From Frigoribacterium sp. PvP032 (GTDB lineage Bacteria > Actinomycetota > Actinomycetes > Actinomycetales > Microbacteriaceae), in the NCBI RefSeq assembly GCF_017833035.1, contig NZ_JAFIBM010000001.1, positions 2,439,762-2,503,761 of the forward strand: a DNA stretch of 64,000 nt. Direction: 5' to 3'. Shown here in pieces: positions 1 through 64,000 of this stretch. Below the pieces are notes generated by a model that was given only the letters and a program-made list of their open reading frames with translations, had not been told where the DNA came from and ran no database searches. How positions within the stretch are numbered: the stretch's first letter is position 1; each line of letters opens with the position of its first letter. The position numbers and the translations under genes are program-made.

Positions 1-605
1 ACGGCGAGGTGTTCCGCCGGTTCACCGCCTCGGTCAGCGTCATCGGCCACGAGCTCGCCCACGGCGTGACGCAGTACACGGCGAACCTCGAGTACCAGGG
101 GCAGTCTGGTGCGCTGAACGAGTCGGTCAGCGACGTCTTCGGCGCGCTGGTCGAGCAGCACCTGTTCGACCAGACGGCCGAGCAGGCGACGTGGCTGATC
201 GGCGAGGGTCTCTTCACCGAGGCCGTCGAGGGCCGCGCGCTCCGCTCGATGTCGGCGCCCGGCACGGCGTACGACGACGACGTGCTCGGCAAGGACCCCC
301 AGCCGGCGCACATGGACGACTACGTCGAGACGACCGACGACAACGGGGGCGTGCACCTCAACTCGGGCATCCCGAACCGGGCGTTCTTCCTCGTCGCCGA
401 CGCCCTCGGCGGCCGCGCGTGGGAGCGTGCGGGGCAGGTCTGGTACGACACGCTCGTCGGCGGGCTCGTGTCGACGACCGCCTCCTTCGCGGAGTTCGCC
501 GCGGCGACCGTCTCGGCCGCCGCCGCCCGGTACGGGGAGGACTCGGAGGAGGCGCGGGCCACGACCGCGGGCTGGCAGGGCGTGGGCGTCGAGCCGGCGG
601 CCTGA
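1..605 (+). CDS. M4 family (thermolysin/protealysin-like) metallopeptidase, 5'-truncated by window edge
   Basis: This is the C-terminal part of a zinc metalloprotease; the reading frame is already open at the first base, so the pro-region and N-terminal catalytic half lie upstream. The zinc-binding HEXXH motif is visible as GHELAHGVTQ. The third zinc ligand lies in the NESVSDVFG motif about 20 residues later. The downstream GGVHLNSGIPNRAF stretch, which carries the family's transition-state histidine, is intact, so the enzyme looks functional. M4 peptidases hydrolyse peptide bonds on the amino side of hydrophobic residues. The next gene encodes an emfourin-type inhibitor, an arrangement known for protealysin-like M4 enzymes. 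Whether this one is secreted cannot be judged without its N-terminus. Confidence 0.93.
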   Translation, partial: GEVFRRFTASVSVIGHELAHGVTQYTANLEYQGQSGALNESVSDVFGALVEQHLFDQTAEQATWLIGEGLFTEAVEGRALRSMSAPGTAYDDDVLGKDPQPAHMDDYVETTDDNGGVHLNSGIPNRAFFLVADALGGRAWERAGQVWYDTLVGGLVSTTASFAEFAAATVSAAAARYGEDSEEARATTAGWQGVGVEPAA

Positions 606-691
606 GCGCTCGGCGGTTCGGCCGGCAGCTCGGACGCTCGGCGCTGCGGCCGCCCGTGCGCCGGGCCCCTCGGCCGCTCGGCGCCGCGGAG

Positions 692-697
692 TAGCAT
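692..697 (+). promoter_or_regulatory. Leaderless -10 box TAGCAT for the emfourin gene
   Basis: TAGCAT fits the actinobacterial TANNNT -10 pattern and ends 7 nt before the ATG at 705. This is the spacing expected of a leaderless transcript, and there is no Shine-Dalgarno sequence in between. Confidence 0.5.
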
Positions 698-704
698 CGC
701 GGCC

Positions 705-1046
705 ATGATGGTGACCGTCCAGAGGTCCGGCGGCTTCGCCGGGCTCACCCGCACCTGGCAGGTCGACGTCGACGCCGAGCCCGACACCGAGTCCTGGCTC
801 GTGCTGCTCGACCTGGTGCCCTGGCAGGAGGCCCCCGCCCCGACCCAGCCGGTGCAGCCCGATCGCTTCGTGTGGGTGATCTCGGCGGAGACGTCGCCGG
901 CCAAGAAGGCGAAGCTGCCCGAGCAGCAGGTGACCGGGCCCTGGCGAGAGCTCGTCGACCGGGTGCGCGAGGTGAGTGACGCCGAGCGGGCTGCCGACGG
1001 ACACGGCACCCGACCGGACTCCGCCGCGCCAGGACGCGAGGGCTAG
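705..1046 (+). CDS. Emfourin-like inhibitor of M4 metalloprotease
   Basis: The 113-residue protein opens with a short beta-rich region containing SGGFAGLTRTW, the signature of emfourins (protealysin inhibitors), and it sits 99 bp downstream of an M4 protease. In Serratia, emfourin binds tightly to the active site of its cognate M4 enzyme and is encoded next to it, so a protease-inhibitor pair is the natural reading. There is no signal peptide, which suggests the inhibitor acts in the cytoplasm, either guarding against premature activation or controlling an intracellular protease. The C-terminal 25 residues are low-complexity. ATG at 705 is chosen because of the -10 box just upstream; a second ATG follows immediately. 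Confidence 0.82.
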   Translation: MMVTVQRSGGFAGLTRTWQVDVDAEPDTESWLVLLDLVPWQEAPAPTQPVQPDRFVWVISAETSPAKKAKLPEQQVTGPWRELVDRVREVSDAERAADGHGTRPDSAAPGREG

Positions 1047-1050
1047 CCGC

Positions 1051-1650
1051 GTGCCCTCTCGAGACACCGTCTTCGCGTCGATCGCCGCGCTCGTCGTCGT
1101 CGGGGGCGCTGTCGGGATCGGGCTCGTCGGGTCGGCGCAGCCGTCCCGGGTCTTCGGCGCCGAGACCGCTCCCCCGTGGCCGGTGCCCGCAGTCGGCGAT
1201 CGGCTCGACCGTGCCGAGCTCGCCGGCATGCAGAACGTCTGGGGCGAGGACCTCGCGATGCACGTCCACACGCACCTCTCGATCACCGTCGACGGGGCGG
1301 CCGTGACGATCCCCGGAGACATCGGGCACGACGCCGACACGAAGCTCGCCGCTCCGCTGCACACCCACGACACGTCCGGCATCGTGCACGTCGAGTCGCC
1401 TCGTCGGGAGTCCTTCGTGCTCGGCCAGCTCTTCACCGAGTGGGACGTGCACCTCGACGCCGTGAGCATCGGCTCGCTCGGACCGGACGACGGCCTCGAG
1501 CTGACGACGTTCGTGGACGGGAGCCGCTGGTCGGGCGACCCGGCCGGCATCCGGCTGAGCGACTTCGAGGACGTCGCGCTCGTGCTCGCGCCCCGGGGCG
1601 AGTCCGTGACCGCGCCTCCTTCGTTCGCCTGGCCGCCCGACTACCGCTAG
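1051..1650 (+). CDS. Membrane-anchored protein with conserved His-rich extracytoplasmic domain, function unknown
   Basis: The product is about 199 residues. One hydrophobic segment (about residues 6-27) acts as signal anchor. The rest is a domain rich in paired histidines: HVHTHLSI near residue 73 and APLHTHDTSGIVHVE about 40 residues later. The histidine spacing suggests metal binding, but I cannot name a characterised family. GTG at 1051 was chosen because it falls 4 nt after the emfourin stop and has a GAGGG purine run 9 nt upstream. A GTG at 976 in the same frame would add 25 residues and overlap the inhibitor gene. The tight spacing implies co-transcription with the inhibitor. Confidence 0.65.
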   Translation: MPSRDTVFASIAALVVVGGAVGIGLVGSAQPSRVFGAETAPPWPVPAVGDRLDRAELAGMQNVWGEDLAMHVHTHLSITVDGAAVTIPGDIGHDADTKLAAPLHTHDTSGIVHVESPRRESFVLGQLFTEWDVHLDAVSIGSLGPDDGLELTTFVDGSRWSGDPAGIRLSDFEDVALVLAPRGESVTAPPSFAWPPDYR

Positions 1651-1764
1651 CGCGTCGGCGTCGGCGTCGGCGTCCGCACCCGCAGGACCCGCGCGCACCC
1701 TCCCGCGCGCCGAAGGGTGCGCGCGGCTTCGGCGGGTGCCGACGATCCAGCGCGGGCGGCGTTG

Positions 1765-1838
1765 CTCGAGGGCGGGTCAACGTCGTCGAGGGCGGGTCCG
1801 CGATGACCCGCCCTCGACGACGGCGACCCGCCCTCGAG
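1765..1838. repeat. Type A four-half-site intergenic element, copy 1
   Basis: CGAGGGCGGGTC occurs at 1767 and 1787, and its reverse complement GACCCGCCCTCG at 1805 and 1825. The spacers are 8, 6 and 8 nt. The same layout recurs at 28006, 39786 (three sites only) and 62607. The spacer sequences differ between copies while their lengths are kept. Confidence 0.9.
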
Positions 1839-1884
1839 CATCAGGAGGCGGAGACGGGCACGCACGGGAGCAGGTGCTCGCGGT

Positions 1885-2008
1885 GGCGGCAGCGCAGGAG
1901 GTGGCGGCAGCGCAGGTGACGGCGGCAGCGCAGGAGGCGGCGGCAGCGCAGGTGACGGCGGCAGCGCAGGAGGCGGCGGAAGAAGTGCAGGAGGCGGCGG
2001 CGCACGGG
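1885..2008. repeat. 18-bp tandem repeat (minisatellite)
   Basis: Five 18-bp units (1885-1974) alternate between GGCGGCAGCGCAGGAGGC-type and GGCGGCAGCGCAGGTGAC versions, then degenerate to about 2008. Every second unit contains AGGAGG. The frame is open through the array into the downstream DinB gene, so the array could in principle encode an Ala/Gln-rich extension. Together with the type A element it fills the 415-bp gap between genes. Confidence 0.85.
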
Positions 2009-2065
2009 GCAGCGGCGGCGCGGGAGGCGGTGGCGGCGGGGGCAAGGAGGCGGCACGCTGGGGGC

Positions 2066-2659: not shown

Positions 2660-2709
2660 CGACAAGACGACGCGGAACATCGCGTCGTCTTGTCGCTATC
2701 GCGTTGCTT
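2646..2709. terminator. 29-nt-arm inverted repeat between convergent dinB-like gene and helD
   Basis: The arms at 2646-2674 and 2681-2709 are reverse complements except for one position, around a 6-nt loop. The stem is much longer than a normal terminator and has no T-run. It lies between two converging genes and includes the stop codon of the first. Confidence 0.7.
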
Positions 2710-2734
2710 CGCAGCGCAAGCGCGCGGCGCGCGG

Positions 2735-10658: not shown

Positions 10659-10696
10659 AGGAGGCGCGGTGCCGGTCGACCGGCACCGCGCCTCCT
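10659..10696. terminator. Perfect 38-nt palindrome, bidirectional terminator capped by AGGAGGCG/CGCCTCCT
   Basis: AGGAGGCGCGGTGCCGG, a central TCGA and the exact reverse complement form a 38-nt perfect palindrome 15 bp past the GH30 stop. The outer 8 bp are the overrepresented octamer and its inverse. No T-run follows. Confidence 0.75.
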
Positions 10697-10710: not shown

Positions 10711-13700
10711 TCAGCTGCGCCGACCCACCCGTCGACGGATGACCAGGGCCGTGCCGAGGACGAGCAGGCCGAGGCCCGCCGCGAGCACGACGCCGAGCGC
10801 CGGGCCGGACCCGGTGAACGCGAGTCGACCGTCGTCGGCCGTGACGACCGGCGACGTGCCGGGCTGCCCCGTCCCGACCGAGGGCGAGCCCCCGGAGCCC
10901 GAGCCGGAGCCGGCTCCCGGTCCCGTGCCCGGTGCCGTCGGGTCGCCGCCCGTGCCGGGTCCGGTCGGGTCGCCTCCCCCGACGGGCGGGTCGACGGGTG
11001 CGGCGAGGATCGTCACGCCCGCGGTCTCGACCGGCTCGGCGTCGACGAACCCGGCCGCGGTCGCCGTGACACGTGCCGTGACGACGCTGCCCTCGGCACC
11101 CTCCGGCACCGTGAAGGCACCGGCCAGGACGGCGGCCCTGGTCGACGGGCCGGCCGCGGCAGCCGGGGCGACGGCCTCCCCGTCGACGAACCACTCGACG
11201 GTGACGGCCGCGTCGCCGGGGTCGACGTCGACGCTCACCCGCAGCTCGGAGCCGACCCGCGGCTCCCCCACGACGACCGCCGAGGTCGTCGCGACCTGGC
11301 GCTCGACGCGCACGGCGTACTCGGTCGTCGTCGATCCGTCCGGCGACGTGATCCGCACCCTGGCGACGCCGCCGTTCGTGGCGTCCGCCTGCGTCGTCGT
11401 GACGGTCGACGTCGTGTCGGTCGCGATCGCCGACACGACGGGCCAGCGCGAGCCCTGGGTGACCACGTCGTACGACCCGGCCGCCGGGTCGAAGCCCTCG
11501 ACCTCGACGCCGTCGACGCGCAGGGTCGCGGCCGTGCTCACCGCCGAGTCGGAGGCGACGGGCTCGAAGAGCTGCACCTCGCTGACGGTGAGGTGGGTGT
11601 TCGCGTACGCGTCCATGACGACGCGGACACCCGACGTGCTGACGGTCGGGAACTCCGCCGTCACGACGGGGGCGCCGGCGGTCGGCACCGCGACGGGCTG
11701 CGGCGTCTCGTACCCGGGCAGCGGCTGCCAGGTGCCGTCGGCCGCCTGCTGCTGGAGCTGGATGCTCTCGGCCCAGCTGCGGGCAGAGCCGTCCGCGTAG
11801 AACTGGACGGCGACCTGCGACACGTCACGCGGTGCGTCGAACGAGTAGGTCAGCGTGCTCTGCGCCGGTTTGCCCGACGACACCCAGTTCGACCAGCCCT
11901 TGTCGCCCGACACCCCGTTGCGGGTGCGGTCGGCCGGGTAGCCCGACTCGGTCGACGAGGCCGTGGCCGCGACTCCCGCGTCGGGGGCGAAGTTGCGGAG
12001 GGTCGAGTCGGTGACGATCAGCGACAGCCGGGCCGGCAGCGTGCCGCCGTCGACCGTGGCCGTGCCGGTCAGGGGCACGACGCCCACTGGGACGAGGTCG
12101 TCGTCGGCCAGGTCTGCGGCGTCCCAGGTGACCGGGACGTCGAAGGTCTGCTCGGAGGCGGCCACCCGTGCGGGCACCGTCTCGGGCAGGGCCGCGACGA
12201 CGCCCGCCGAGGGGCTGCCCACGGCGACCGTGAGCGACACCGGGTCGGTGACCGTCAGGCCGCCGACGTCGACGAGCGCGGTGACCGCGAACGACTGCCC
12301 GAAGACGTCGGTCGCCGTGCCGGTCACCTCGACGCGGCCGGGCGTCTGCCAGGCAGCTGCGTCGACGGCGTCCCAGGTCACCGGCGCCGCGGCCCCGGTG
12401 CCCCACGAGTAGCGCGCCACGACCGTGGCGGGCAGCGCAGGAGGCACGCCAGCGTCGGTCCGGACCGCGACGGTCTGGCCAGCGGCCGGCTCGAGGTCAC
12501 GGACGGCCCAGCGCTGGTTCGCGCCGCCGTTCGTGCCGTACACGCCGACCGGGGCGCCCTCGGCGGTCGACTGGCCGCCGACGTCGAGTGACTGGGCGAC
12601 GCCGTCGCCGACGAACGAGAAGGTCCCGCCGTCGGTCGTCGTCACCCACCAGCGCGTGGCCGCGTCGGCGGCAGCCGCCGAGGCGTCGACCGCGCGGAGC
12701 TCGGTGCCGCGGGAGGTCGCCGCGAGGAACCGGCCGTCGCCCGCCTGCAGGGTCACCCTGCGGACGTCGCCGGACGCGGTGGGCACGGCGCGGGCGGTCC
12801 AGGACTGGCCGGCCGCCGCCTCCGTCGTGGTGGCCGAGGAGGCGAGGGCGGGGCCGGTCGAGCCGGCCGCGGCACCCAGCGCCTTGCCGCTCTGGACGCC
12901 CACGAACTGGTACTCGTGGCCGTCGACGACTGCGGGTGCGTCGGCGGCGACGCCGGAGACGCCGCTCACCTCGAAGGTCGTGATCGACTTCGCCGGCACG
13001 GTCAGGGTCGCGGTCCCGGCGGCGACGTCGACAGCGACGGGCGTGCCGGGCACGACGCCCGTCGAGGTGACCTCGGCGCCCTCGGGAGCCTCGGTGGTCG
13101 TGTACGGCGTGACCGACGCCTCCTGGTCGATCGCCCCGAAGCGGGACAGGTCGATCGTGACCGTGCGGTCGACGCTCGTCGTGTTGCGGTGCACGAGCGT
13201 GGCGCCGTCGCCGTCGGGGCGCACGGCGGCGGTGGTGTCGACGTCGTCCACGGCGACCAGGCGGTCGCCCTCGTGGATGAACTTCGTGAAGTTGCGGAGC
13301 GCGGAGAACTTCGAGTTCACCTCGACCGAGCAGGGCTCGACCGCTGTCGAGTCGCCCCCGGCGTCGGCGACGCGACGCTCGCTCTTCCAGACCTCGGCGC
13401 CGTCCTCGGTGAACGGGACGCAGTCGAGGTCGATGAACATCGAGCCCCAGTTGAGGTCCTCGCCCTGCGGCTCCATGTTGTAGAGGTCCTCGACGGGCTG
13501 CCAGAGCACCCAGGCGTCGGGCTCGAGCTCGCGCAGGTCGTCCGTCACGCGGCCGGCCATGCCGAGGCCGTTCTCGATGTTCGCCGGGTCCCAGCCGTTC
13601 ACCCAGCTGCCCTCGATCTCGCTCATCCAGAGCGGCGAGTCCGCCTGCTTGGCGAGGTCGCGGACGCCGAGACGACCGCTCGTGCCGTAGGTGTGCACGT

Positions 13701-14721
13701 TGAGGCGCTCGACCGCGTCGCGGGTCGCCTGGGGGTACGCCGCCCAGTTCGTGGCGAAGATGCCGGGGTTCGTCTCGTCCATCGCCGCGATGAACGCGTC
13801 GGTGGTCGTGCCGGACTCGGCCAGCTCGGCCTGCAGGGCGGCGATCACGCGCACCTGCTGGTCGGGCGAGACGTGCATGCCCTCCTGGCGGCCGGTCGGC
13901 TGGCCGTCGCGGATCGTCGTGCCCCAGTAGTTCGTGTTCGGCTCGTTGAACGGGTCGATCGACTCGACCTCGATGCCCGAGGTCTGCTCGAGCTGCTCGG
14001 TGACCCGGGTGAGGTAGCTGACGAAGTCGGCCTCCGACGTGGTCCTCAGCTGCTGCGCCGTCGAGTTGAACCCGCCCGACACGTAGCCGCTCTCGGTCAT
14101 GAAGTACGGCGCCGAGTTGGCGAACGTCTCCCAGTGCGTGATCTGGTCGTCGGCCGCCAGGCGGTCGACCCACCAGCGCTGCGTCGCGTCGGCGTCGAGG
14201 TCGTACTGCGAGAGGTCGTCGGCGTCGAAGGCCGCGCGCACGGCCTCGCGGTCGGCGTAGGCCGTGGAGGCGCCTCCGTAGACGCCCGCGCTGCCGTCGG
14301 CGTCCGGGGCCCACCAGCCGTCGACCGCGCCGCCGGGCCGCAGGTAGTCGACGACGTCGCTCGCGTTGCCGCCGCCGATGTTGTACCGGGCGATGTTGAG
14401 GTCGAGCCCCTCCTCGCCGAAGACGGCCTGGTAGAGGTCCTCGCGGAGCTCCTCGGGGTAGCCGCCGGTCGCGTTGGCGAACCAGACGAGGCTGGTGCCC
14501 CAGCCCTGGAACGGGTCGCCCGCGTACCAGGGGTTCGGCGTGAGGGTCACCCCCTCCGCCGCCGCAGCCGCCGCCTGCGCTGCGCCTGCCGTCGTCGCTG
14601 CGCCTGCTGGCTCGGCGGTCGGCAGCGCCGTGGCCAGCCCGACGGCGACCAGCGCCGTGGCGCTCGCCCCCGCCAGCAGCCGTGTCGCCGCGCGTCGTAC
14701 AGATCGTGATCGTCGCATCAT
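10711..14721 (-). CDS. Secreted modular GH30 glycoside hydrolase with lectin, Ig-like and CBM-like domains and LAXTG cell-wall anchor
   Basis: The 1336-residue protein is a cell-wall-anchored polysaccharide hydrolase. Signal peptide: residues 1-42. GH30 domain: about 60-540, with WGTSLVWF, NIARYNIGGG, acid/base Glu in DPFNEPN (about residue 260) and nucleophile Glu in WMSE (about 368). The N-terminal blocks resemble endo-beta-1,6-galactanases. Next come a ricin-like lectin domain (about 615-780), Ig-like repeats with VTWDAVDAAAW and VTWDAADLADD, an F5/8-type discoidin domain near 960-1110, and a cadherin-like beta-sandwich. A Gly/Ser/Pro linker leads to LAFTG (about 1300-1304), a membrane helix and an Arg tail, which is the class E sortase signal. 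ATG at 14721 has GAGGGG upstream. Substrate is inferred, perhaps arabinogalactan. Confidence 0.88.
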   Translation of the reverse strand: MMRRSRSVRRAATRLLAGASATALVAVGLATALPTAEPAGAATTAGAAQAAAAAAEGVTLTPNPWYAGDPFQGWGTSLVWFANATGGYPEELREDLYQAVFGEEGLDLNIARYNIGGGNASDVVDYLRPGGAVDGWWAPDADGSAGVYGGASTAYADREAVRAAFDADDLSQYDLDADATQRWWVDRLAADDQITHWETFANSAPYFMTESGYVSGGFNSTAQQLRTTSEADFVSYLTRVTEQLEQTSGIEVESIDPFNEPNTNYWGTTIRDGQPTGRQEGMHVSPDQQVRVIAALQAELAESGTTTDAFIAAMDETNPGIFATNWAAYPQATRDAVERLNVHTYGTSGRLGVRDLAKQADSPLWMSEIEGSWVNGWDPANIENGLGMAGRVTDDLRELEPDAWVLWQPVEDLYNMEPQGEDLNWGSMFIDLDCVPFTEDGAEVWKSERRVADAGGDSTAVEPCSVEVNSKFSALRNFTKFIHEGDRLVAVDDVDTTAAVRPDGDGATLVHRNTTSVDRTVTIDLSRFGAIDQEASVTPYTTTEAPEGAEVTSTGVVPGTPVAVDVAAGTATLTVPAKSITTFEVSGVSGVAADAPAVVDGHEYQFVGVQSGKALGAAAGSTGPALASSATTTEAAAGQSWTARAVPTASGDVRRVTLQAGDGRFLAATSRGTELRAVDASAAAADAATRWWVTTTDGGTFSFVGDGVAQSLDVGGQSTAEGAPVGVYGTNGGANQRWAVRDLEPAAGQTVAVRTDAGVPPALPATVVARYSWGTGAAAPVTWDAVDAAAWQTPGRVEVTGTATDVFGQSFAVTALVDVGGLTVTDPVSLTVAVGSPSAGVVAALPETVPARVAASEQTFDVPVTWDAADLADDDLVPVGVVPLTGTATVDGGTLPARLSLIVTDSTLRNFAPDAGVAATASSTESGYPADRTRNGVSGDKGWSNWVSSGKPAQSTLTYSFDAPRDVSQVAVQFYADGSARSWAESIQLQQQAADGTWQPLPGYETPQPVAVPTAGAPVVTAEFPTVSTSGVRVVMDAYANTHLTVSEVQLFEPVASDSAVSTAATLRVDGVEVEGFDPAAGSYDVVTQGSRWPVVSAIATDTTSTVTTTQADATNGGVARVRITSPDGSTTTEYAVRVERQVATTSAVVVGEPRVGSELRVSVDVDPGDAAVTVEWFVDGEAVAPAAAAGPSTRAAVLAGAFTVPEGAEGSVVTARVTATAAGFVDAEPVETAGVTILAAPVDPPVGGGDPTGPGTGGDPTAPGTGPGAGSGSGSGGSPSVGTGQPGTSPVVTADDGRLAFTGSGPALGVVLAAGLGLLVLGTALVIRRRVGRRS

Positions 14722-14798
14722 CGTCGATGCAGCCCCTCTGTCGAACTGACGGCCGACCCTGACGTCGACCGTGGGGTCGTCGTCGACCCTCTCGTCGA

Positions 14799-14804
14799 CC
14801 CTAC
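14799..14804 (-). promoter_or_regulatory. Candidate -10 box TAGGGT of GH30 gene
   Basis: Minus-strand TAGGGT lies directly downstream of the palindromic operator at 14807-14820. It would give a leader of roughly 70 nt before the ATG at 14721. Confidence 0.4.
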
Positions 14805-14806
14805 GA

Positions 14807-14820
14807 TGTTTGCGCAAACA
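14807..14820. promoter_or_regulatory. LacI-family-type operator TGTTTGCGCAAACA
   Basis: This is a perfect 14-bp palindrome with the central CG and flanking TTTG/CAAA typical of LacI/GalR-family operators. It is placed just upstream of the GH30 -10 box, where a bound repressor would block RNA polymerase. No lacI-type gene is in the window. Confidence 0.65.
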
Positions 14821-15536: not shown

Positions 15537-16157
15537 ATGGACTCGGACACGGTGACCACTACACCTCGACTGGCGCTACGCCTCCATCGCTCGAGCGATC
15601 TGGAGCGGCTCGTGGCGATCCACTCCCGGCCGGACGTCGCGAGGTACCTCCTGCAGGAGCCGTGGACCCTCGAAGACGGGAAGGCACAGCTCGAACGGCG
15701 CCTGCTCCGGACGGACCTGGCCGAGCCCGTCGGGGCCCTGGCACTCGTGATCGAGCGTGAGGGCCTGCTGATCGGCACGGTGTCGCTCTGGCGCACCGAG
15801 CAGGAACGACGCACGGTCGAGCTCGGCTGGACCCTCGATCCCGAGCACGGAGGCGCCGGCTACGCGAGCGAGGCGGTCGCAGCCGGCCTGCGTCTCGCGT
15901 TCGGACAGCCCGACGTCCATCGCGTCACCGCGCAGCTGGACGCTCGCAACACGGCCTCCGAGCGTCTCGCTGCGCGTGTGGGCCTGCGGCGGGAGGCACA
16001 CCACCGGCAGGACTTCTGGAGCAAGGGCGAGTGGACCGACACCCTGGTCTTCGCGCTGCTCGCGGACGAGTACCGCGCGCAGTCGGGATCCGGTCAGGCG
16101 GGCTTCGAGCAGCCGGGCTCCGGTCAGTCCGCGAGCACCGACCGCACCGCGTCGTAG
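15537..16157 (+). CDS. GNAT family N-acetyltransferase (RimJ/RimL type)
   Basis: The 206-residue acetyltransferase starts TPRLALRLHRSSDLERLVAIHSRPDVARYL, the pattern of the ribosomal-protein-acetylating RimJ/RimL subfamily. The acetyl-CoA-binding region is ELGWTLDPEHGGAGYASEAVAAGL, and VTAQLDARNTASERLAARVGLRREA is the conserved C-terminal block. The acceptor may be a protein N-terminus or a small amine; it cannot be specified. A strong AGGAGG Shine-Dalgarno lies about 11 nt before the ATG. The last 34 bp overlap the 3' end of the convergent xylanase gene. The Gly/Ser/Gln-rich tail (about 25 residues) that causes the overlap is not part of the fold. Confidence 0.9.
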   Translation: MDSDTVTTTPRLALRLHRSSDLERLVAIHSRPDVARYLLQEPWTLEDGKAQLERRLLRTDLAEPVGALALVIEREGLLIGTVSLWRTEQERRTVELGWTLDPEHGGAGYASEAVAAGLRLAFGQPDVHRVTAQLDARNTASERLAARVGLRREAHHRQDFWSKGEWTDTLVFALLADEYRAQSGSGQAGFEQPGSGQSASTDRTAS

Positions 16158-17830
16158 GCGGGCGTCGCCTCGCCGTCGTCGAAGAGCAGGTCGTGGCCCT
16201 GCTCCACGCCGTCGTCGTCGACGAAGAAGTCGTACCGGTCGTCCACTCCCCACGTCGTGTACGAGACGCAGGTCTCCGAGCCGAGGCAGGTCGAGAGGAT
16301 CGTGGCGAACTGCTCTGCCTGGGCGGCCTGCCCCTGAGCGTCCGTGACGTCGTTCTCCGAGATCCGGACGAGCAGCCCGGCGTCCTCGAAGCTGTCGAGG
16401 GTCTCGCCGAGGTCGTCGGCCGAGACGGCGTCGGTGTCGAGGTCGTAGACGTGGGCCTGGAGGCCGACGCCGTCGACGTGACCACCCGCAGCGTTCGTGT
16501 CGAGGACGAGCTGCCGCAGGGCGTCCTGACGTGGCCCCGGCACGTCGGCGCCGTTCTCGTTGACGAACTGCCGCACGTCCGGGTCCGCGTCGTGGACCGC
16601 CTGCGAGACGACCACGGGATAGTCCTCCCCGAAGACCCGCAGCCAGGTGTTCTCCTGCAGCTCCGTCCCCTGGTCGACGTCGAACGGCTCGTTGACGACG
16701 TCGAGCGAGTCCAGCCGACCCCGGAAGTGCGTGACCACGGTCGTGACGTAGTCGAGCAGGGCGTCGGCGCTGGCCTGGCGCTCCTCCTGGGTGTCGCTGG
16801 GCAGGTCCTGCATCCAGCGCGGCATCGCCTCGGAGAAGGCGATGGTGTGGCCGTGGACGGCGATGCCCTTGCTCTCTGCGAGGTCGAGCAGGGCGTCCGC
16901 CTCCTCGAAGACGTACTCTCCCTGGCGCGGGGAGAGCGCCTGCGGCTTCATCGCGTTCTCGGGCGTGAGGGCGCCGAACTCGCCCACGAACTCGTCGGCG
17001 TAGTCCACGTCCGAGACGAGTGGGCCGAGTGCCACGGCGGCGCCGACGAGGAACTCCGGACGTGAGCGGGCGGCGAGCGCCTGCAGGCCGTCGGGAGACG
17101 GCTCGGCATCGGCGGCCACGGGGCCCGCGGCGGCGAGGTCGCCTCCGGCCGCCGCCGAGGCCGTCAGCGACTCGACCGTGAAGGTCCCCTCTGCGCTCGA
17201 CAGCCCCAGCCAGAGCTCGCCCGAGCCGAGGACGTCGCCGAGCGCCAGGGTCGACACCGTCTCACCGTCGCTCGTGATCTCGAGCCGATCGCCGCGACGG
17301 TCCACGGCGAGCTCGGCCTCGGGATCGGAGATCGTGACGTGCTCGTCCTCGGCCGGCTCGGGGTCGCCCACGTCGTCCGGGGACGAGCCGTCGAAGACGG
17401 TGATGCGCAGGTCGTCGCCGCTGAGGGTGAGGTGCAGCCCGGCGGGCTCGAGGCGGAACTCGTCCGCGATCACCGGCGGGCTGCCGAGGAGGGACAGGGT
17501 CGCGTCGGCGGTGACATCCGTGAAGGAGGCGCGGAGCGAGAAGTCCTGCACGCCCACCAGGTGGGTCCCCGCGAGGTCCACCGGCGGGTCCGGCCGGCCG
17601 CCCCCGCCGTCCTGCTGGACGATGCTCCGGCCGGTCGCGGACACCCGCAGTTCGTCGCCGTCCACGACGACCCCCGGGACCTGCTGCCAGCCCCCGTGCA
17701 GCAGGTCGATCACGGTGTCCCGCTCGGGTGCCGGGTCCGTCGAGCTGCAACCGGCCAGGGCGACGCAGAGACCCACGGCCACGACGCTCACGACGCGGCG
17801 GCGTCGGACGGACCGGCCCGCCGTCAGCAC
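16124..17830 (-). CDS. GH10 endo-1,4-beta-xylanase-like lipoprotein
   Basis: The 568-residue lipoprotein has a signal peptide ending in a lipobox (VALAGCSS, lipidated Cys about residue 28). A beta-sandwich region (about 35-225) resembles a LamG/DUF1080-like carbohydrate-binding fold, and a GH10 barrel spans about 255-568. GH10 motifs: TPENAMKP, acid/base Glu in DVVNEPFD (about 381), GVGLQAHVYD, and nucleophile Glu in RISENDV (about 492). The usual GHTLVWH block is altered to GHTIAFSEAMPRW, so specificity may differ from true xylanases. GTG at 17830 is the only start giving a complete signal peptide. It lacks a Shine-Dalgarno but overlaps the stop of a 19-codon leader ORF (17824-17883), suggesting translational coupling. 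Confidence 0.85.
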   Translation of the reverse strand: MLTAGRSVRRRRVVSVVAVGLCVALAGCSSTDPAPERDTVIDLLHGGWQQVPGVVVDGDELRVSATGRSIVQQDGGGGRPDPPVDLAGTHLVGVQDFSLRASFTDVTADATLSLLGSPPVIADEFRLEPAGLHLTLSGDDLRITVFDGSSPDDVGDPEPAEDEHVTISDPEAELAVDRRGDRLEITSDGETVSTLALGDVLGSGELWLGLSSAEGTFTVESLTASAAAGGDLAAAGPVAADAEPSPDGLQALAARSRPEFLVGAAVALGPLVSDVDYADEFVGEFGALTPENAMKPQALSPRQGEYVFEEADALLDLAESKGIAVHGHTIAFSEAMPRWMQDLPSDTQEERQASADALLDYVTTVVTHFRGRLDSLDVVNEPFDVDQGTELQENTWLRVFGEDYPVVVSQAVHDADPDVRQFVNENGADVPGPRQDALRQLVLDTNAAGGHVDGVGLQAHVYDLDTDAVSADDLGETLDSFEDAGLLVRISENDVTDAQGQAAQAEQFATILSTCLGSETCVSYTTWGVDDRYDFFVDDDGVEQGHDLLFDDGEATPAYDAVRSVLAD

Positions 17831-17883
17831 GCGTCGACCGCGAGGACCGGACTGAGGGGACCGTGTGGAACGTGCGCCGGCAT
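17824..17883 (-). CDS. Putative leaderless 19-aa leader peptide coupled to the GH10 gene
   Basis: On the minus strand, an ATG at 17883 opens a 19-codon frame (begins MPAHVPHGPL, ends VLAVDAC) whose TGA at 17826-17824 falls inside the first codons of the xylanase gene. A -10-like GATACT (complement of 17890-17895) ends 6 nt before the ATG, so the peptide would be translated from a leaderless transcript. Ribosomes ending there could restart at the GTG at 17830. No homologue is known to me; the peptide itself may have no function. Confidence 0.4.
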   Translation of the reverse strand: MPAHVPHGPLSPVLAVDAC

Positions 17884-17889
17884 GCCCCC

Positions 17890-17895
17890 AGTATC
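17890..17895 (-). promoter_or_regulatory. Candidate -10 box GATACT upstream of leader peptide/xylanase
   Basis: Minus-strand GATACT lies 6 nt before the leader ATG at 17883. It differs from TATACT only at the first base. Confidence 0.35.
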
Positions 17896-17937
17896 CCTGC
17901 GCGCATCGCCGCTCGCGGACGGGGGCCGACGGTTCGT

Positions 17938-18837
17938 CTACGGTCTCGCCTCGAGCAGGAGGCTGCGGACCGCGTCGGCCGTGCGCGCGACGCGTTCGGC
18001 TCGCGGCGACGAGAACAACGCCGCGTCGTCGCTCGTGACCACCGCCTCCTCGTGCCACTGCGCGTCGTAGAGGGCCGATCGATAGCCCGACGACACCTGG
18101 CAGCCGACGTCGGCCGAGGCGAACTGGCGGCCTGCGTCGGTGACCGGCACGGGCACGGAGTCGACAGCGGGTGTCAGCAACTCCATCGGGTCGTCGGGCA
18201 GATCGTCGCTCGACGCGGGCGCGGCCTCCGTCAGGCACGCGCGCCAACGCTCGGCTGCGGCTACCACGTCGCCGTCGGCGAGGGCGTCTCGGCGAGCGAC
18301 GAGTCTGAGTTCCCGGGCACGGGACTGCACATCCTGGCCGTCGAAGGGCGTCCCCCAGGAGGTGCCGCGCACCTCCGGGAGGCAGCTGTCGAGAGCGCGT
18401 CCCAGCTCCGCATCGGCGTTGTGCTGCCGCGCCCAGGTGCTCCAGGCCACCTCGGAGTCGTCGGTGACGGGCCCGTGGCCGAAGCGCTCGGCTCGCTCCG
18501 CGTCGAGCGGCGGCACCACGGCCGAGTCGTCGCGCCAGGTGTCCGCGGCGAGGAGGATCGTGGGATCGCGATCGGGAGCCGTGGCCGTCCAGCCCTGCTC
18601 GGCGAGGCACGGACGGAGGCGCAGGTCCTCGGCCCACGACTCTGCGTCTGGGGTGACACCGACAGCGGCGTCGAGGGGCATGCTCCACGCCGCGACGTCA
18701 CGCTGAGGCTGGTGAGGCACAGGCGTCGAGGGCGCTGCCGGCCAGTTCGCGACGGCCACGCCGACGAGGCCGACGGCGACGGCCAGCGCGACTGCGCGGC
18801 GGCCGACCGCGGCGGCGGTGCGGGGTGATGACGTCAT
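17938..18837 (-). CDS. Secreted or membrane-anchored Cys-containing protein of a two-component operon, function unknown
   Basis: The 299-residue protein has a hydrophobic N-terminal signal or anchor (about residues 14-32). A mature part follows with four well-spaced cysteines (RPCLAEQGW, DSCLPEVRG, RACLTEAAP, VGCQVSSGY), likely two disulfides outside the cell. I do not recognise a named family. The ATG overlaps the response regulator stop by 4 bp (ATGA), so it is the third gene of the kinase-regulator operon. It could be an accessory sensor or an output of that system; this is inferred from position only. Confidence 0.75.
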   Translation of the reverse strand: MTSSPRTAAAVGRRAVALAVAVGLVGVAVANWPAAPSTPVPHQPQRDVAAWSMPLDAAVGVTPDAESWAEDLRLRPCLAEQGWTATAPDRDPTILLAADTWRDDSAVVPPLDAERAERFGHGPVTDDSEVAWSTWARQHNADAELGRALDSCLPEVRGTSWGTPFDGQDVQSRARELRLVARRDALADGDVVAAAERWRACLTEAAPASSDDLPDDPMELLTPAVDSVPVPVTDAGRQFASADVGCQVSSGYRSALYDAQWHEEAVVTSDDAALFSSPRAERVARTADAVRSLLLEARP

Positions 18838-39160: not shown

Positions 39161-39742
39161 GTGGACCACGGCGGGCAGGACCGGATCGGGCTCGACCACG
39201 TCGCGCTGCTGCGCGGCATCAACGTGGGGACGGCGAAGCGCGTCCCGATGGTCGAGCTCCGCGCGGCCGCCGAGGAGCTGGGGCACCAGCGCCCGGCGAC
39301 GTTGCTGAACAGCGGGAACCTCGTGTTCTCCGCCGACCGTCCGCTCGGTGCCGACGACGCCGACGCCCTGCGGGCAGCCGTCCTCGCGCGCACGGGCGTC
39401 GACGCCGAGCTCGTCGTCCTGGCAGGCGACGCGTTCGCGCGGATCGCCGCGGCGAACCCGCTGCGCGACGAGTCACGCGAGGCGAAGTCGTTGTCGGTCG
39501 CGTTCGCCCAGGCGGGGCGTCCCGTGATCGAGGAGGCGCCTCCTGCGTCCGACCTCGCCCCCGAGCTGATGGTCGTGACGGGCGAGGCGGTCTACCAGTG
39601 GCTGCCCGACGGCGTGCTCGCCAGTCGCGTGCCCGCCGCGTGGTGGCGGTCGCTCGCCGTGCCGGTCACCGCGCGCAACGACGCGACGGTGCGCAAGATC
39701 GAGGCGCTGCTCGCGTCGCGCCGCCTCGTCGCCTCCTCCTGA
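39161..39742 (+). CDS. DUF1697 family protein
   Basis: The 193-residue protein begins VALLRGINVGTAKRVPMVELR and has TLLNSGNLVFS and RNDATVRKIEALL, the blocks that define DUF1697. The fold is known from structures but the function is not. GTG at 39161 is only 6 bp past the oligopeptidase stop and has no separate ribosome-binding site, so translation is probably coupled. Confidence 0.88.
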   Translation: MDHGGQDRIGLDHVALLRGINVGTAKRVPMVELRAAAEELGHQRPATLLNSGNLVFSADRPLGADDADALRAAVLARTGVDAELVVLAGDAFARIAAANPLRDESREAKSLSVAFAQAGRPVIEEAPPASDLAPELMVVTGEAVYQWLPDGVLASRVPAAWWRSLAVPVTARNDATVRKIEALLASRRLVASS

Positions 39743-42439: not shown

Positions 42440-42488
42440 CGAAGGAGGCGCGGATCCGGTCCCGGGGACCGGCGCCGCGCCTCCTTCG
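42440..42488. terminator. Terminator hairpin of poxB capped by AGGAGGCG/CGCCTCCT
   Basis: CGAAGGAGGCGCGG pairs with CCGCGCCTCCTTCG, enclosing an inner CCGGTCCC/GGGACCGG stem. It lies 14 bp past the poxB stop. The outer arms carry the overrepresented octamer in inverted orientation. Confidence 0.75.
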
Positions 42489-60075: not shown

Positions 60076-60092
60076 GCGTTCTCCTGCACGGG

Positions 60093-60126: not shown

Positions 60127-60138
60127 TCCACCCGGGAG

Positions 60139-60144: not shown

Positions 60145-60151
60145 CGCGGGC

Positions 60152-60427: not shown

Positions 60428-60451
60428 GGTCGCGGCGGCGAGGTCGGCCCG

Positions 60452-61489: not shown

Positions 61490-61572
61490 GTTCCTCCGCA
61501 TGCGCTCCGAATGACCGCCGTGCGGGTACAAGGCCCGGACACGTCCCCCGCCAGGCGGGCACCGTGGAGCGC

Positions 61573-62460
61573 ATGAGCCAATACGACAAGAAGAACCCGG
61601 TCGACCTGTACCCCGCACCGCCGTTCCCGAAGCAGGAGCAGTCGCTGCCGGGCGAGGCCTGGAAGATGGACCCGAAGCCCGACCACGGCGAGACCAGCTA
61701 CGTCGGCAAGGAGCGCCTCGTCGGCTTCCGCGGCCTCGTGACCGGCGGCGACTCCGGCATCGGCCGCGCCGCCGCCATCGCCCTCAGCCGCGAGGGCGCC
61801 GACCTCGTGCTGAGCTACCTGCCCAGCGAGCAGGCCGACGCCGAGGAGGTGCGCGATCTGCTCGAGGGCGAGGGCCGTCGCGTCGTCCTGGTGCCCGGCG
61901 ACATCTCGGACGAGCAGTACTGCAGGGACCTCGTCGCGAAGGCCGTCGAGGAGCTCGGCGGGCTCGACACGCTCGTCATGGTCGCCGGCCGCATGAAGAG
62001 CAACGACGACATCCTCACGCTCACCACCGAGGACATCGACTCGACCATCAAGACCAACGTCTACTCGCTGTTCTGGCTGTCGCAGGCGGTCATCCCGCAC
62101 CTCGAGCCCGGCTCGTCGATCGTCACGACCGGCTCGGTGCAGGGCACGCAGCCGAGCCCCGACAAGATCGACTACGCGCTGACGAAGGGTGCCATCGGCG
62201 TCTTCACCGCGGGCCTCGCGCAGCAGCTCGCCCCCAAGGGCATCCGCGTCAACCAGGTCTCGCCCGGCCCGGTGTGGACGCCGCTGCAGCCCGGCTCGGA
62301 CGACGCCGAGACCGTGTCGGAGTTCGGCGGCCAGGCGCCGTACGGCCGCCCCGGCCAGCCGGCCGAGCTGGCCGCGGCCTACGTGCACCTCGTGAGCCCT
62401 GAGTCGAGCTACACCTCGGGTGCGACCATCACGATCGCGGGGGCCATGCCGGCGGTCTGA
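61573..62460 (+). CDS. Short-chain dehydrogenase/reductase (YdaD/GSP39-like)
   Basis: The 295-residue SDR belongs to the longer-N-terminus group of general stress proteins. A 40-residue lead (PFPKQEQSLPGEAWKMDPKPDHGE) is followed by the coenzyme motif VTGGDSGIGRAAAIALS, LVMVAGRM, catalytic Ser in TTGSVQGTQ and Tyr/Lys in YALTKGA. The substrate is unknown. ATG at 61573 is preferred to GTG at 61564. It lies between ku and ligD, possibly part of a stress island. Confidence 0.9.
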   Translation: MSQYDKKNPVDLYPAPPFPKQEQSLPGEAWKMDPKPDHGETSYVGKERLVGFRGLVTGGDSGIGRAAAIALSREGADLVLSYLPSEQADAEEVRDLLEGEGRRVVLVPGDISDEQYCRDLVAKAVEELGGLDTLVMVAGRMKSNDDILTLTTEDIDSTIKTNVYSLFWLSQAVIPHLEPGSSIVTTGSVQGTQPSPDKIDYALTKGAIGVFTAGLAQQLAPKGIRVNQVSPGPVWTPLQPGSDDAETVSEFGGQAPYGRPGQPAELAAAYVHLVSPESSYTSGATITIAGAMPAV

Positions 62461-62489
62461 CCGGCACCGCGCCTCCTCGGCTCCGCTCG

Positions 62490-62521
62490 CGGCCCGCTCC
62501 CCCGTCCAGGCGGGGAGGCGG
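62490..62521. terminator. Hairpin after SDR gene
   Basis: CCCGCTCCCC pairs imperfectly with GGGGAGGCGGG around a short loop, 30-60 bp past the stop. Confidence 0.45.
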
Positions 62522-62606
62522 GCCGCCGCAGTCCGCGGACGCCACCACACACGGTGTGTGCCGCACAGAACACGCCGCGAGCATGATCGAGGTAGCTGCA
62601 CCCCGT

Positions 62607-62676
62607 CGAGGGCGGGTCGCCCGCACCGAGGGCGGGTCGCTCGCTACCCGCCCTCGACGCAACGGACCCGCCCTCG
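62607..62676. repeat. Type A four-half-site intergenic element, copy 4
   Basis: CGAGGGCGGGTC lies at 62607 and 62627, TACCCGCCCTCG at 62645 and GACCCGCCCTCG at 62665. Spacers are 8, 6 and 8 nt. It is followed by GGCA-type short repeats (62705-62723). Confidence 0.9.
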
Positions 62677-62743
62677 ACGAAGCGCGCGGGCGGGAGGCGG
62701 CGGGTAGGCAGGCAGGCAGGCAGACGACACGAGGAGGCGGCGG

Positions 62744-64000
62744 ATGGCCAGCAAGGGACGCGGCGAGCGCGTGCAGGTCGGCGGGCACACGCTGCAGCTC
62801 ACCAACCTCGACAAGGTGCTGTACCCCGCGAGCGGCACGACGAAGGCGGACGTCCTCGGCTACTACGCCTCCGTCGCGGAGTGGATGCTGCCGCACGTCG
62901 AGGGGCGTCCCGCGACGCGGAAGCGCTGGGTGAACGGGGTCGACGGCGAGGTGTTCTTCGAGAAGAACCTGCCCGACTCCGCACCCGACTGGGTCGCCCG
63001 GCACGAGATCGAGCACAAGGACCACGCGAACGTCTACCCGATGGTCAACGACCTCGCGACGCTCACCTGGCTGGCGCAGGTCGCCGCTCTCGAGGTGCAC
63101 GTGCCCCAGTGGCGCTTCGGCCCGCGCGGCGCGCAGCGGAACCCCGACCGGCTCGTGCTCGACCTCGACCCGGGCGAGGGCGTCGGCCTGGCCGAGTGCG
63201 TCGAGGTCGCGCAGCTGCTGCGGCCCCTGCTCGACGGGATGGGCCTCGAGCTCGTGCCGGTGACGAGCGGCAGCAAGGGCGTGCACCTCTACGCGCGGCT
63301 CGACGGGAAGCAGACGAGCGCGCAGGTGAGCGACGTCGCCCACGAGCTCGCCCGGGCCGTCGAGGCCGACCACCCCGACCTCGTGCTGAGCACGATGGGC
63401 AAGGCCGACCGCCACGGCAAGGTGCTGCTCGACTGGTCGCAGAACAACGGCAACAAGACGACGGTCGCGCCGTACTCGCTGCGCGGCCGCGAGCGCCCGA
63501 CCGTCGCGATGCCGCGCACCTGGCGCGAGCTGGCGTCGAAGCAGCTGCGGCAGCTCGAGTACACCGAGGTGCTGGAGCGGCTGAGGCGCCGCGGAGATCC
63601 CCTGGCCGACGTGTCGAGCGGCACTCCGGTGCCCCCAGGAGAGCTCGGCGACGACATGCGCAACACCGAGTCGCCCGAGCACGAGCACGACGACGACACG
63701 GCGACGGGCGGCGACGGAGAGAAGCGCGAGGGGCGCGACCGCCTCGCGAAGTACCGCTCGATGCGCGACGCGTCGAAGACCGCCGAGCCGGTCCCCGCCG
63801 CCGCACCGCCGACGAGCGACGGCCGCAGCTTCGTCATCCAGGAGCACCACGCCAGCCGCCTGCACTGGGACTTCCGCCTCGAGCACGACGGCGTCCTCGT
63901 CAGCTGGGCCCTGCCCAAGGGCGAGCCGGACGACCCCGGCACGAACCACCTCGCGGTGATGACCGAGGACCACCCGCTCGAGTACGGCACCTTCGAGGGC
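62744..64000 (+). CDS. ligD: ATP-dependent DNA ligase LigD (polymerase and phosphoesterase parts), cut by window edge
   Basis: The frame stays open to the last base. Residues about 1-290 are the primase-like polymerase domain, with VLDLDPGEG (catalytic acidic pair), SGSKGVHLYARLDG and KVLLDWSQNN. A linker of about 60 acidic residues leads to the 3'-phosphoesterase domain (SFVIQEHHASRLHWDFRLEHDGVLVSWALPKG), which provides the metal-binding His and Asp. The ligase domain must lie downstream. Polymerase-phosphoesterase-ligase order is the mycobacterial type. The protein joins broken DNA ends held by Ku. ATG at 62744 has GAGGAGG six nt upstream; here the octamer AGGAGGCG doubles as the ribosome-binding site. 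Confidence 0.94.
   Translation, partial: MASKGRGERVQVGGHTLQLTNLDKVLYPASGTTKADVLGYYASVAEWMLPHVEGRPATRKRWVNGVDGEVFFEKNLPDSAPDWVARHEIEHKDHANVYPMVNDLATLTWLAQVAALEVHVPQWRFGPRGAQRNPDRLVLDLDPGEGVGLAECVEVAQLLRPLLDGMGLELVPVTSGSKGVHLYARLDGKQTSAQVSDVAHELARAVEADHPDLVLSTMGKADRHGKVLLDWSQNNGNKTTVAPYSLRGRERPTVAMPRTWRELASKQLRQLEYTEVLERLRRRGDPLADVSSGTPVPPGELGDDMRNTESPEHEHDDDTATGGDGEKREGRDRLAKYRSMRDASKTAEPVPAAAPPTSDGRSFVIQEHHASRLHWDFRLEHDGVLVSWALPKGEPDDPGTNHLAVMTEDHPLEYGTFEG

What the first reader, a model, noticed from the sequence alone, without database searches (positions are those of the whole stretch)
1..64000. Overrepresented octamer AGGAGGCG/CGCCTCCT, in both orientations and all frames
By eye the octamer occurs roughly 70 times in 64 kb, for example near 479, 3065, 6388, 18049, 25655, 32054, 39529, 44309, 50068, 54561 and 62731. 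At this base composition a handful would be expected. The orientations are about balanced, which argues against a polar FtsK/KOPS-type signal. Within genes it is read in different frames (EEA, RLL, ASS), so selection acts on DNA. At 39529 it forms a perfect palindrome. The pattern resembles DNA-uptake sequences of Neisseria and Pasteurellaceae, none of which are known to me in Actinobacteria.
Basis: partly seen in the sequence, partly recalled or inferred. Interest (0 to 1): 0.82.

Follow-up and report, generated by a model that had tools for sequence, protein, structure and literature searches.

The report
DNA uptake-like word with genus dialects
A family of soil and plant bacteria carries thousands of copies of one short DNA word, spelled differently in different genera, in a pattern so far known to me only from the self-recognition tags of a few Gram-negative bacteria that take up DNA.

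Summary
The octamer is real and far beyond chance. AGGAGGCG/CGCCTCCT occurs 36+42=78 times in the window; Markov orders 1-3 predict 6-9. The 3.33 Mb genome has 1490+1492 copies, reversed word 402. All 16 genus genomes have 0.40-0.90 per kb; sampled outside genomes at most about 0.26.

It acts on DNA: threefold over a synonymous-codon null, enriched in every frame, denser between genes (2.1 vs 0.75 per kb), not polar. Inverted pairs form terminator-like hairpins (76 '-> <-' vs 21 '<- ->').

Beyond the window, other Microbacteriaceae (Microbacterium, Cryobacterium, Agromyces, Leifsonia, Herbiconiux) over-use GGATGC with CG flanks, up to 2,931 GGATGCCG per genome, and a 1.4-Mb relative over-uses CATCGGTG. 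This is the anatomy of DNA uptake sequences and their dialects, in a Gram-positive family where I found none described. ComEA, ComEC and pilus genes are present.

Uptake itself is untested. A Chi-like role with AdnAB, or another chromosome-wide binding site, remains possible. Against uptake: gene presence does not track the word, single sites are not kept between distant species, and one phage carries its host's word.

The parts
1..64000 (.). All 78 octamer sites. AGGAGGCG on + starting at 547, 1843, 1932, 1968, 1989, 2045, 3325, 5872, 9243, 10659, 12837, 17524, 20453, 20712, 22248, 24956, 25655, 27947, 28237, 31342, 33581, 35704, 36877, 36901, 39531, 41628, 42443, 44735, 50412, 52309, 54040, 54559, 55692, 58496, 59453, 62732; CGCCTCCT (word on -) starting at 479, 1613, 3070, 5403, 6393, 6917, 7303, 8794, 9455, 10689, 13117, 16898, 18043, 22957, 23918, 27372, 30509, 32054, 32553, 35505, 37934, 39537, 39730, 39753, 40557, 40609, 41938, 42124, 42148, 42478, 44090, 44316, 45215, 46234, 50069, 52634, 53763, 54281, 54682, 55628, 57678, 62470
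   Evidence: exact search; Markov and codon nulls
10659..10696 (.). Inverted pair of the octamer forming a perfect 17-bp stem between convergent called genes (terminator-like; termination not tested)
   Evidence: (fold -39.8 kcal/mol)
42443..42485 (.). Inverted pair of the octamer forming a long stem (11 bp + 7 bp) between convergent called genes (terminator-like; termination not tested)
   Evidence: (fold -38.6 kcal/mol)
39531..39544 (.).
1932..2052 (+). Cluster of four direct octamers in a low-complexity stretch; probably repeat-driven

Best explanation
The octamer is a self-DNA tag that works like the DNA uptake sequences of Neisseriaceae and Pasteurellaceae. Proposed mechanism: an exposed DNA-binding part of the uptake machinery (a Tad/Flp or type IV minor pilin, or ComEA) prefers double-stranded DNA carrying AGGAGGCG. 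Kin DNA enters through ComEC and recombines into the chromosome, so alleles with the word are copied back more often than alleles without it. Copies then build up by point mutation plus biased import, wherever protein coding allows. That gives many sites, on both strands, densest between genes, partly reused as terminator stems, and with turnover of single sites. A change in reader specificity resets the preferred word, giving genus dialects (GGATGC-type in much of the family, AGGAGGCG here). Shown: abundance, DNA-level selection, balance, intergenic and hairpin excess, genus boundary, other such words in sister genera, presence of the uptake genes.
For: Copy number 2982 per 3.33 Mb, 1490/1492 by strand. 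No stretch is polar: 197/232 in 21 stretches, homogeneity p = 0.75. Coding sites 303 vs about 104 under synonymous shuffling (maximum of 20 shuffles 115), enriched in all six frames; 0.75/kb coding vs 2.12/kb noncoding. Present in 16 of 16 genus genomes at 0.40-0.90/kb. Inverted pairs within 30 bp in 16 genomes: 1088 '-> <-' vs 370 '<- ->', same direction in 16 of 16 (sums mine); of 11 '-> <-' pairs in 24 stretches, 8 are intergenic. Sister genera over-use GGATGC-type words, 2.8-6.8 fold over codon shuffles in Microbacterium, Cryobacterium, Agromyces, Leifsonia and Herbiconiux, with hairpins in the same order in Microbacterium and Cryobacterium. A 1.4-Mb family member, G025, has CATCGGTG 107 times in genes vs 18.7 by codon shuffling. 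ComEC in 25 of 25 family genomes searched; an ATPase in the score class of this genome's Tad ATPase in 25 of 25 (only this genome's neighbourhood was looked at); ComEA, PilB-like ATPase, pilin and prepilin peptidase in this genome. Two other Microbacteriaceae transform naturally (PMC11577799, passages), and Micrococcus uses tad genes, with ComEA/EC homologues present (PMC4322843, PMC6370729, passages). Inverted-repeat terminators and family dialects are described as DUS/USS traits (PMC12616744, passages).
Against: No uptake data and no receptor. Presence of ComEC, PilB or Tad does not track the word: it persists in G002, G003 and G006, which gave no PilB-type hit, and ComEC is also in genomes without a known word. 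Of five small genomes (the size class of the known transformers) one shows a strong word; G020, G028 and G030 show none in 120, 180 and 140 kb, and G027 was seen for 20 kb only. Individual sites are not kept in distant genus members (40 of 218 vs 417 of 2141 control words). One of five Microbacterium phages carries the host word at 3.3 times its codon expectation (13 vs 3.9) and two others mildly (13 vs 6.3, 10 vs 6.1), so it is not strictly a chromosomal mark. The nearest genera, Curtobacterium and Frondihabitans, show neither word. G004 and G007 of the genus exceed the reversed control only 2.6 and 2.2 times, and an unrelated test word reaches 5.5 times its reversed control in one genome (G036), so that ratio alone proves little. 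No uptake sequence is known to me in any Gram-positive.
Confidence: 0.5

Rival explanations
1. A Chi-like recombination hotspot: a helicase-nuclease of the AdnAB type meets the word during end resection, stops degrading and loads RecA, so chromosomal DNA is spared; different genera carry different words because the scanning subunit changed.
For: Short, G-rich, non-palindromic word; two neighbouring PDDEXK_1 proteins (AdnAB-like, assignment inferred) in this genome; whether AdnAB answers to Chi was described as unknown in 2016 (PMC4824097, passage); one phage carries the host word.
Against: No RecC in 25 of 25 family genomes searched. No polarity in any stretch, whereas Chi is usually oriented with replication (recalled). 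Denser between genes, and paired in terminator-like stems, for which a Chi role gives no reason.
Confidence: 0.2
2. A binding site of an abundant chromosome-organising or repair protein that needs about one site per kilobase on either strand and whose specificity differs by genus.
For: Even use of both strands, Poisson-like spacing (CV 1.01), genus-wide presence.
Against: No actinobacterial nucleoid protein with such a site is known to me; single sites turn over quickly; the excess of one inverted arrangement is unexplained.
Confidence: 0.17
3. A neutral by-product: context-dependent mutation or biased gene conversion that favours the word without any reader.
For: Fast positional turnover, no excess retention beyond near relatives; enrichment in noncoding DNA where constraint is weak.
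Against: Enrichment is specific to one word: apart from its first base, no single-base neighbour exceeds 1.7 times its order-3 expectation, against 8.3 times for the word. It changes at a genus boundary with little change of base composition.
Confidence: 0.08
4. Protein or codon usage (EEA, RLL, ASS peptides) or Shine-Dalgarno-like AGGAGG.
For: The most frequent frames are those that codon usage favours.
Against: Threefold over synonymous shuffles, and 30-180 fold in the three frames where codon usage predicts almost none. Of 123 fully noncoding sites only 5 sit in ribosome-binding position in the sense orientation. The sister genus Curtobacterium has fewer than its codons predict (17 vs 49.4).
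Confidence: 0.02

Closest known systems
DNA uptake sequences (DUS) of Neisseriaceae and uptake signal sequences (USS) of Pasteurellaceae
   Same: Thousands of copies of a non-palindromic word, near 1 per kb, balanced strands, denser between genes, inverted pairs in terminator-like stems, different words in related genera, competence genes present (terminators and dialects: PMC12616744 passages; copy density, balance and intergenic excess of DUS/USS: recalled)
   Different: Gram-positive Actinobacteria without an outer membrane; an 8-base word against 9-12; the words differ inside the stretch they share (GGATGC vs GGAGGC), while DUS/USS inner cores are conserved (PMC12616744, passage); uptake bias and receptor not shown
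Chi sites of RecBCD/AddAB
   Same: Short, frequent, G-rich, lineage-specific word
   Different: No polarity; RecC absent from the family genomes searched; intergenic and hairpin excess
HIP1 of cyanobacteria (recalled)
   Same: Hyper-abundant octamer across one bacterial group with unknown function
   Different: HIP1 is a palindrome (recalled); this word is not, and other genera use a different one
FtsK/SpoIIIE orienting sequences (KOPS/SRS)
   Same: Short chromosome-wide word
   Different: No strand polarity in any of 21 stretches

Membership tests
DNA uptake sequence (DUS/USS) | Hundreds to thousands of genomic copies, far above composition | tested here: met
   2982 copies; codon and Markov nulls
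DNA uptake sequence (DUS/USS) | No strand polarity | tested here: met
   1490/1492; homogeneity p = 0.75 over 21 stretches
DNA uptake sequence (DUS/USS) | Often in inverted pairs forming terminator stems | tested here: met
   76 vs 21 in this genome; same direction in 16 of 16 genomes; folds. Termination itself not measured
DNA uptake sequence (DUS/USS) | Related dialects in related genera | tested here: met
   GGATGC-type words in sister genera and CATCGGTG in G025; but the genera nearest to this one have neither word, so descent is inferred
DNA uptake sequence (DUS/USS) | Natural competence machinery | tested here: met
   genes only: ComEA, ComEC, Tad-type and type IV pilus genes; the TadE match is below its cut-off
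DNA uptake sequence (DUS/USS) | Word raises DNA binding, uptake or transformation | not testable with these tools
   needs experiment
DNA uptake sequence (DUS/USS) | Sequence-reading minor pilin (ComP or PpdA/ComN type) | not tested
   candidates listed, no binding or coevolution analysis done
DNA uptake sequence (DUS/USS) | Low in foreign DNA such as phages | tested here: inconclusive
   5 of 5 phages below the host genus's density, but 1 of 5 clearly and 2 of 5 mildly above codon expectation
Chi site | Orientation bias along replication | tested here: not met
   no polarity in any stretch; the origin was not located
Chi site | RecBCD or AddAB reader present | tested here: inconclusive
   RecC absent in 25 of 25 family genomes; AdnAB-like pair present; AddAB not searched as such
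KOPS/SRS | Strong strand polarity | tested here: not met
REP/MITE-type repeat | Copies share conserved flanks | tested here: not met
   flank information below 0.4 bit per base

The most novel reading that the evidence does not exclude
A Gram-positive family, Microbacteriaceae, has its own DNA self-recognition system with genus-specific words (AGGAGGCG here, GGATGC-type in Microbacterium, Cryobacterium, Agromyces, Leifsonia and Herbiconiux, CATCGGTG in a small-genome relative), independent of the Neisseria and Haemophilus systems and presumably read by a Tad/Flp pilus or ComEA. It would be the third origin of uptake sequences known to me and the first without an outer membrane.
Probability: 0.45. 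Interest if true: 0.93.

Novelty: new variant of a known kind. Interest (0 to 1): 0.85.

Why it matters
Uptake sequences are known to me from two Gram-negative families only (PMC12616744 treats those two as independent origins; passages), and why they exist is a long-standing question. A third, independent case with genus dialects in Gram-positives would separate what is general (pairing as terminators, intergenic excess, turnover) from what depends on the outer membrane. It would make the evolution of dialects testable across many sequenced genera, and would give a practical handle for transforming Microbacteriaceae. If it proves instead to be a Chi for AdnAB, it answers a stated open question about that enzyme (PMC4824097, passage).

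Tried and rejected
Codon or peptide cause: rejected. Ribosome-binding sites: rejected. Polar signal: rejected. Mobile repeat: rejected, flanks not conserved. RecBCD Chi: RecC absent from the family genomes searched.

First-pass 'dialects' that failed: CTCGGCGA in Curtobacterium, TGCGCGAG in Rathayibacter and GATGCCGA in Planctomonas, Plantibacter and Labedella came up, but are rarer between genes than inside them, and two of the three are strand-biased; I treat them as codon artefacts. Rathayibacter and the window's word: three loci hold 23 copies in 59 kb (0.34-0.45 per kb), 2.2-3.0 times an order-2 model and 1.5-1.8 times order 3, so two of the three passed my loose threshold in the tree; but 22 in genes face 15.9 by codon shuffling (maximum of 10: 20), so I count no dialect. 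A further Rathayibacter candidate, CGGAGTCG (25 in genes vs 11.5), did not exceed 0.24 per kb in any of 60 whole genomes and is left open.

Per-site conservation: octamers were kept in the three nearest relatives in 55 of 75 cases vs 334 of 640 for same-composition words, but no better than control in the twelve others (split mine). I expected stronger conservation. Pilus or ComEC presence as a correlate: no correlation. Small genomes: my first scan found no clear word; on more sequence one of them (G025) did have one. Genus name: the named collection returned no member of the window's genus. I first guessed Clavibacter; flagellar genes and a place beside Frondihabitans in a one-protein tree fit a motile genus such as Frigoribacterium better (Clavibacter's lack of motility is recalled); unproven. 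A plasmid comparison was dropped: one search with a chromosomal stretch gave no plasmid of this genus.
Full report
WHAT WAS CLAIMED.

CHECK. There are 78 (36 on +, 42 on -). Expected by Markov orders 0 to 4: 5.5, 6.1, 6.2, 9.4, 15.5. With order 2 it is the most enriched 8-mer among words counted at least 15 times. Of its 24 single-base neighbours only the three with another first base are clearly raised (29, 13 and 10 vs 13.4, 7.6 and 5.4); of the other 21 none exceeds 1.7 times expectation. So the word is GGAGGCG with a preferred A before it; in 464 kb the four first bases give A 429, C 238, G 107, T 49.

GENOME AND GENUS. The window lies in a 3,327,708-base single contig (G000). It holds 1490 forward and 1492 reverse copies, against 402 of the reversed word. 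In 60 relatives including G000, all 16 of the genus have 0.40-0.90 copies per kb (2.2 to 11.8 times the reversed word, computed; G004 and G007 are weakest). The other 21 family genomes and 23 order genomes reach at most about 0.26 per kb (G055). In a class-wide draw of 394 genomes (393 outside the genus) the highest is about 0.23 per kb (G380). The reversed-word ratio by itself is weak evidence: a test word, CGGAGTCG, spans ratios from about 0.3 to 5.5 in 60 genomes while staying at or below 0.24 per kb. Density is the better measure, and by it the genus stands apart. In named 11-22 kb loci the nearest approach is Rathayibacter (0.34-0.45 per kb), which codon usage mostly explains (22 in genes vs 15.9); Curtobacterium has fewer than its codons predict (17 vs 49.4).

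SELECTION ON DNA. In 464 kb of G000 (window plus 20 evenly spaced stretches) my gene caller gave 435 genes. The word stands at 0.75 per kb inside genes and 2.12 outside. Inside genes 303 sites face about 104 under synonymous shuffling (maximum of 20 shuffles: 115), and each of the six reading positions is enriched, 1.6 to 180 fold. In the window alone 47 face 14.1, maximum 23 of 200. Of 123 fully noncoding sites, 5 sit as sense ribosome-binding sites. Gene calls are mine and unannotated, so the noncoding figure carries some error; the stretch at 1843-2052 is an example.

ARRANGEMENT. Strands are 197/232 over 21 stretches with no heterogeneity (p = 0.75); the origin was not located, but no stretch is polar. 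Spacing is Poisson-like (CV 1.01). Copies per 20 kb vary from 5 to 32 (variance/mean 3.2). Inverted pairs within 30 bp: G000 has 76 as AGGAGGCG...CGCCTCCT and 21 the other way; by my arithmetic from the counts chance gives about 21 of each. The 16 genomes together have 1088 and 370 (sums mine), and all 16 agree in direction; reversed-pattern controls are 0-4 per genome. In the window, 10659-10696 and 42443-42485 are long hairpins of -39.8 and -38.6 kcal/mol between convergent called genes. In 24 stretches (window, 20 and 3 more) 8 of 11 such pairs are intergenic, 5 of them between convergent genes, and 6 of 11 fold at -31 kcal/mol or lower. Whether they stop transcription was not tested.

TURNOVER. 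At aligned places, the three nearest relatives keep 55 of 75 octamers against 334 of 640 control words of the same composition; the twelve others keep 40 of 218 against 417 of 2141 (the split is mine). Abundance is maintained while places change.

THE FAMILY. Named loci around one conserved gene were fetched from 80 genomes (the best 80 of 589). Pooled by genus they revealed another word: GGATGCCG 230 vs 36.6 expected in Microbacterium, CGGATGCC 276 vs 42.8 in Cryobacterium and 59 vs 6.7 in Agromyces, TGGATGCG 33 vs 5.2 in Leifsonia, CGGATGCG 43 vs 8.7 in Herbiconiux. Pooled loci are orthologous, so those counts are not independent; whole genomes are: GGATGCCG reaches 2931, 2906, 2063, 1937, 1570, 1495, 1176 and 1030 copies in eight of the 21 other family genera sampled (0.34-0.85 per kb), 382-557 in the window's genus (0.12-0.16), and at most about 0.24 per kb outside the family. 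Codon shuffles leave a 2.8 to 6.8 fold excess in Microbacterium, Cryobacterium, Agromyces, Leifsonia and Herbiconiux; strands are near balance and noncoding density is 0.9 to 1.6 times coding. Three other candidate words failed these tests and were dropped. A scan that demanded balance and noncoding presence put GGATGC-type words on top in g2, g7, g9, g10, Microbacterium, Cryobacterium, Leifsonia, Agromyces, Herbiconiux and Agreia, and found nothing as strong in Curtobacterium, Rathayibacter, g8 or G020. G025, a 1.43-Mb genome, has its own word: CATCGGTG, 112 copies in 260 kb, 107 in genes vs 18.7 by codon shuffling (maximum of 10: 27); it lies almost wholly in genes, where nearly all of such a small genome lies, and in 260 kb it no longer passes my noncoding filter. 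G028 (180 kb) and G030 (140 kb) showed no comparable word. GGATGC pairs also prefer the '-> <-' order: 21 of 29 in Microbacterium (7 of 8 among stems of 10 or more), 18 of 24 in Cryobacterium, 8 of 10 in Herbiconiux, 3 of 4 in Agromyces; Leifsonia (3 of 7) and Agreia (1 of 4) do not show it, and orthologous loci repeat some pairs. GGATGCG and GGAGGCG differ by one base; that one gave rise to the other is my inference. On a tree of one 702-residue protein (96 rows) the window's genus forms one clade beside Frondihabitans and Curtobacterium, which have neither word.

READERS. ComEC is in 39 of 40 genomes, among them 25 of 25 of the family. T2SSE ATPases are in 40 of 40; a strong PilB-type hit is missing in G002, G003, G006, G018, G020 and G022 of the family, while each of the 25 family genomes has a hit in the score class of G000's Tad ATPase (a capped list; the typing by score is mine). 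In G000, Pfam finds ComEA (HHH_3 and SLBB) next to ComEC, a secretion ATPase followed by a Flp-like DUF4244 protein and a TadE match below cut-off, and a type IV pilus set (PilB-like ATPase, second ATPase, N-methyl pilin, prepilin peptidase). RecC is absent from 25 of 25 family genomes; two neighbouring PDDEXK_1 proteins fit AdnAB (assignment inferred).

PHAGES. Five Microbacterium phage genomes have 5, 3, 13, 13 and 10 GGATGCCG, against 50, 45, 43, 19 and 45 at the density of pooled Microbacterium loci and 6.3, 3.7, 6.3, 3.9 and 6.1 by codon shuffling. All five are poorer than that density, but Efeko is clearly and two others mildly above their codon expectation. This neither makes nor breaks the uptake reading.

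INTERPRETATION. The combination of thousands of copies, balance, intergenic excess, terminator-like pairing and different words in different genera is, among things known to me, that of uptake sequences. No single observation proves uptake. I give uptake-like self-recognition 0.5, a Chi-like role 0.2, another chromosome-wide binding site 0.17, neutral bias 0.08 and codon causes 0.02.

LITERATURE. Searches of the open PMC library: 'DNA uptake sequence' with Actinobacteria gave 7 papers, none on such a word by title or abstract opening; AGGAGGCG one unrelated paper by title; GGATGCCG none; 'DNA uptake sequence' with Microbacterium none; the same with dialect and Gram-positive 13 papers, 12 listed, none on a Gram-positive uptake word by title; Clavibacter with natural transformation and competence 3; overrepresented, octamer, Clavibacter none; four of five terms on oligonucleotide motifs none. 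CATCGGTG was not searched. Subscription papers are mostly not in that library. Passages only were read of PMC11577799, PMC4322843, PMC12616744, PMC6370729 and PMC4824097.

LIMITS. The genus is unnamed. The genes were called by my own script. Words were scored in samples for most genera.

Noticed in passing
G025, L155-L157 and L188-L197: A 1.43-Mb family member over-uses CATCGGTG/CACCGATG: 112 copies in 260 kb, 107 in genes vs 18.7 by codon shuffling; also ACCCCGAT and TCGGTGTT are raised.
   Followed up: partly
L139 (G055:C1:10001-30000): The word CCCGCATA occurs 33 times in 20 kb, with neighbours CCGCGTAT and GCGTATGC, which looks like a repeat array (CRISPR or tandem).
   Followed up: no
G000 stretches L009-L028: Octamer number per 20 kb falls from 32 and 28 at one side of the chromosome to 5-15 around 1.7-2.4 Mb, though the window at 2.44-2.50 Mb is rich; it may follow core versus accessory or highly expressed genes.
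   Followed up: partly
L170 1935-14886 (G000:C1 about 3.252-3.265 Mb): A type IV pilus gene set (PilB-like and second ATPase, N-methyl pilin, large minor-pilin-like proteins, prepilin peptidase); no PilB-type hit in G002, G003 and G006 of the same genus.
   Followed up: partly
L148 (Microbacterium phage Efeko): A 17-kb phage carries 13 GGATGCCG on both strands, 3.3 times its codon expectation, close to the density of Microbacterium loci; it also encodes a protein annotated as Lsr2-like.
   Followed up: partly
flanks of the octamer in G000: Weak discontinuous preference beyond the octamer, chiefly G at the third and C at the sixth base after it, in genes and between genes; hairpins often run on as AGGAGGCGCGGTGC.
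   Followed up: no
Curtobacterium loci L029-L032, L034-L044: AGGAGGCG is rarer than codon usage predicts (17 in genes vs 49.4), i.e. the sister genus seems to avoid the word that the window's genus amasses.
   Followed up: no
window 10711-14817 and 16124-18688 (-): Large proteins: one with GH30 C-terminal, ricin-type lectin, Ig-like and F5/8 domains, one with a GH10 glycosidase domain.
   Followed up: no
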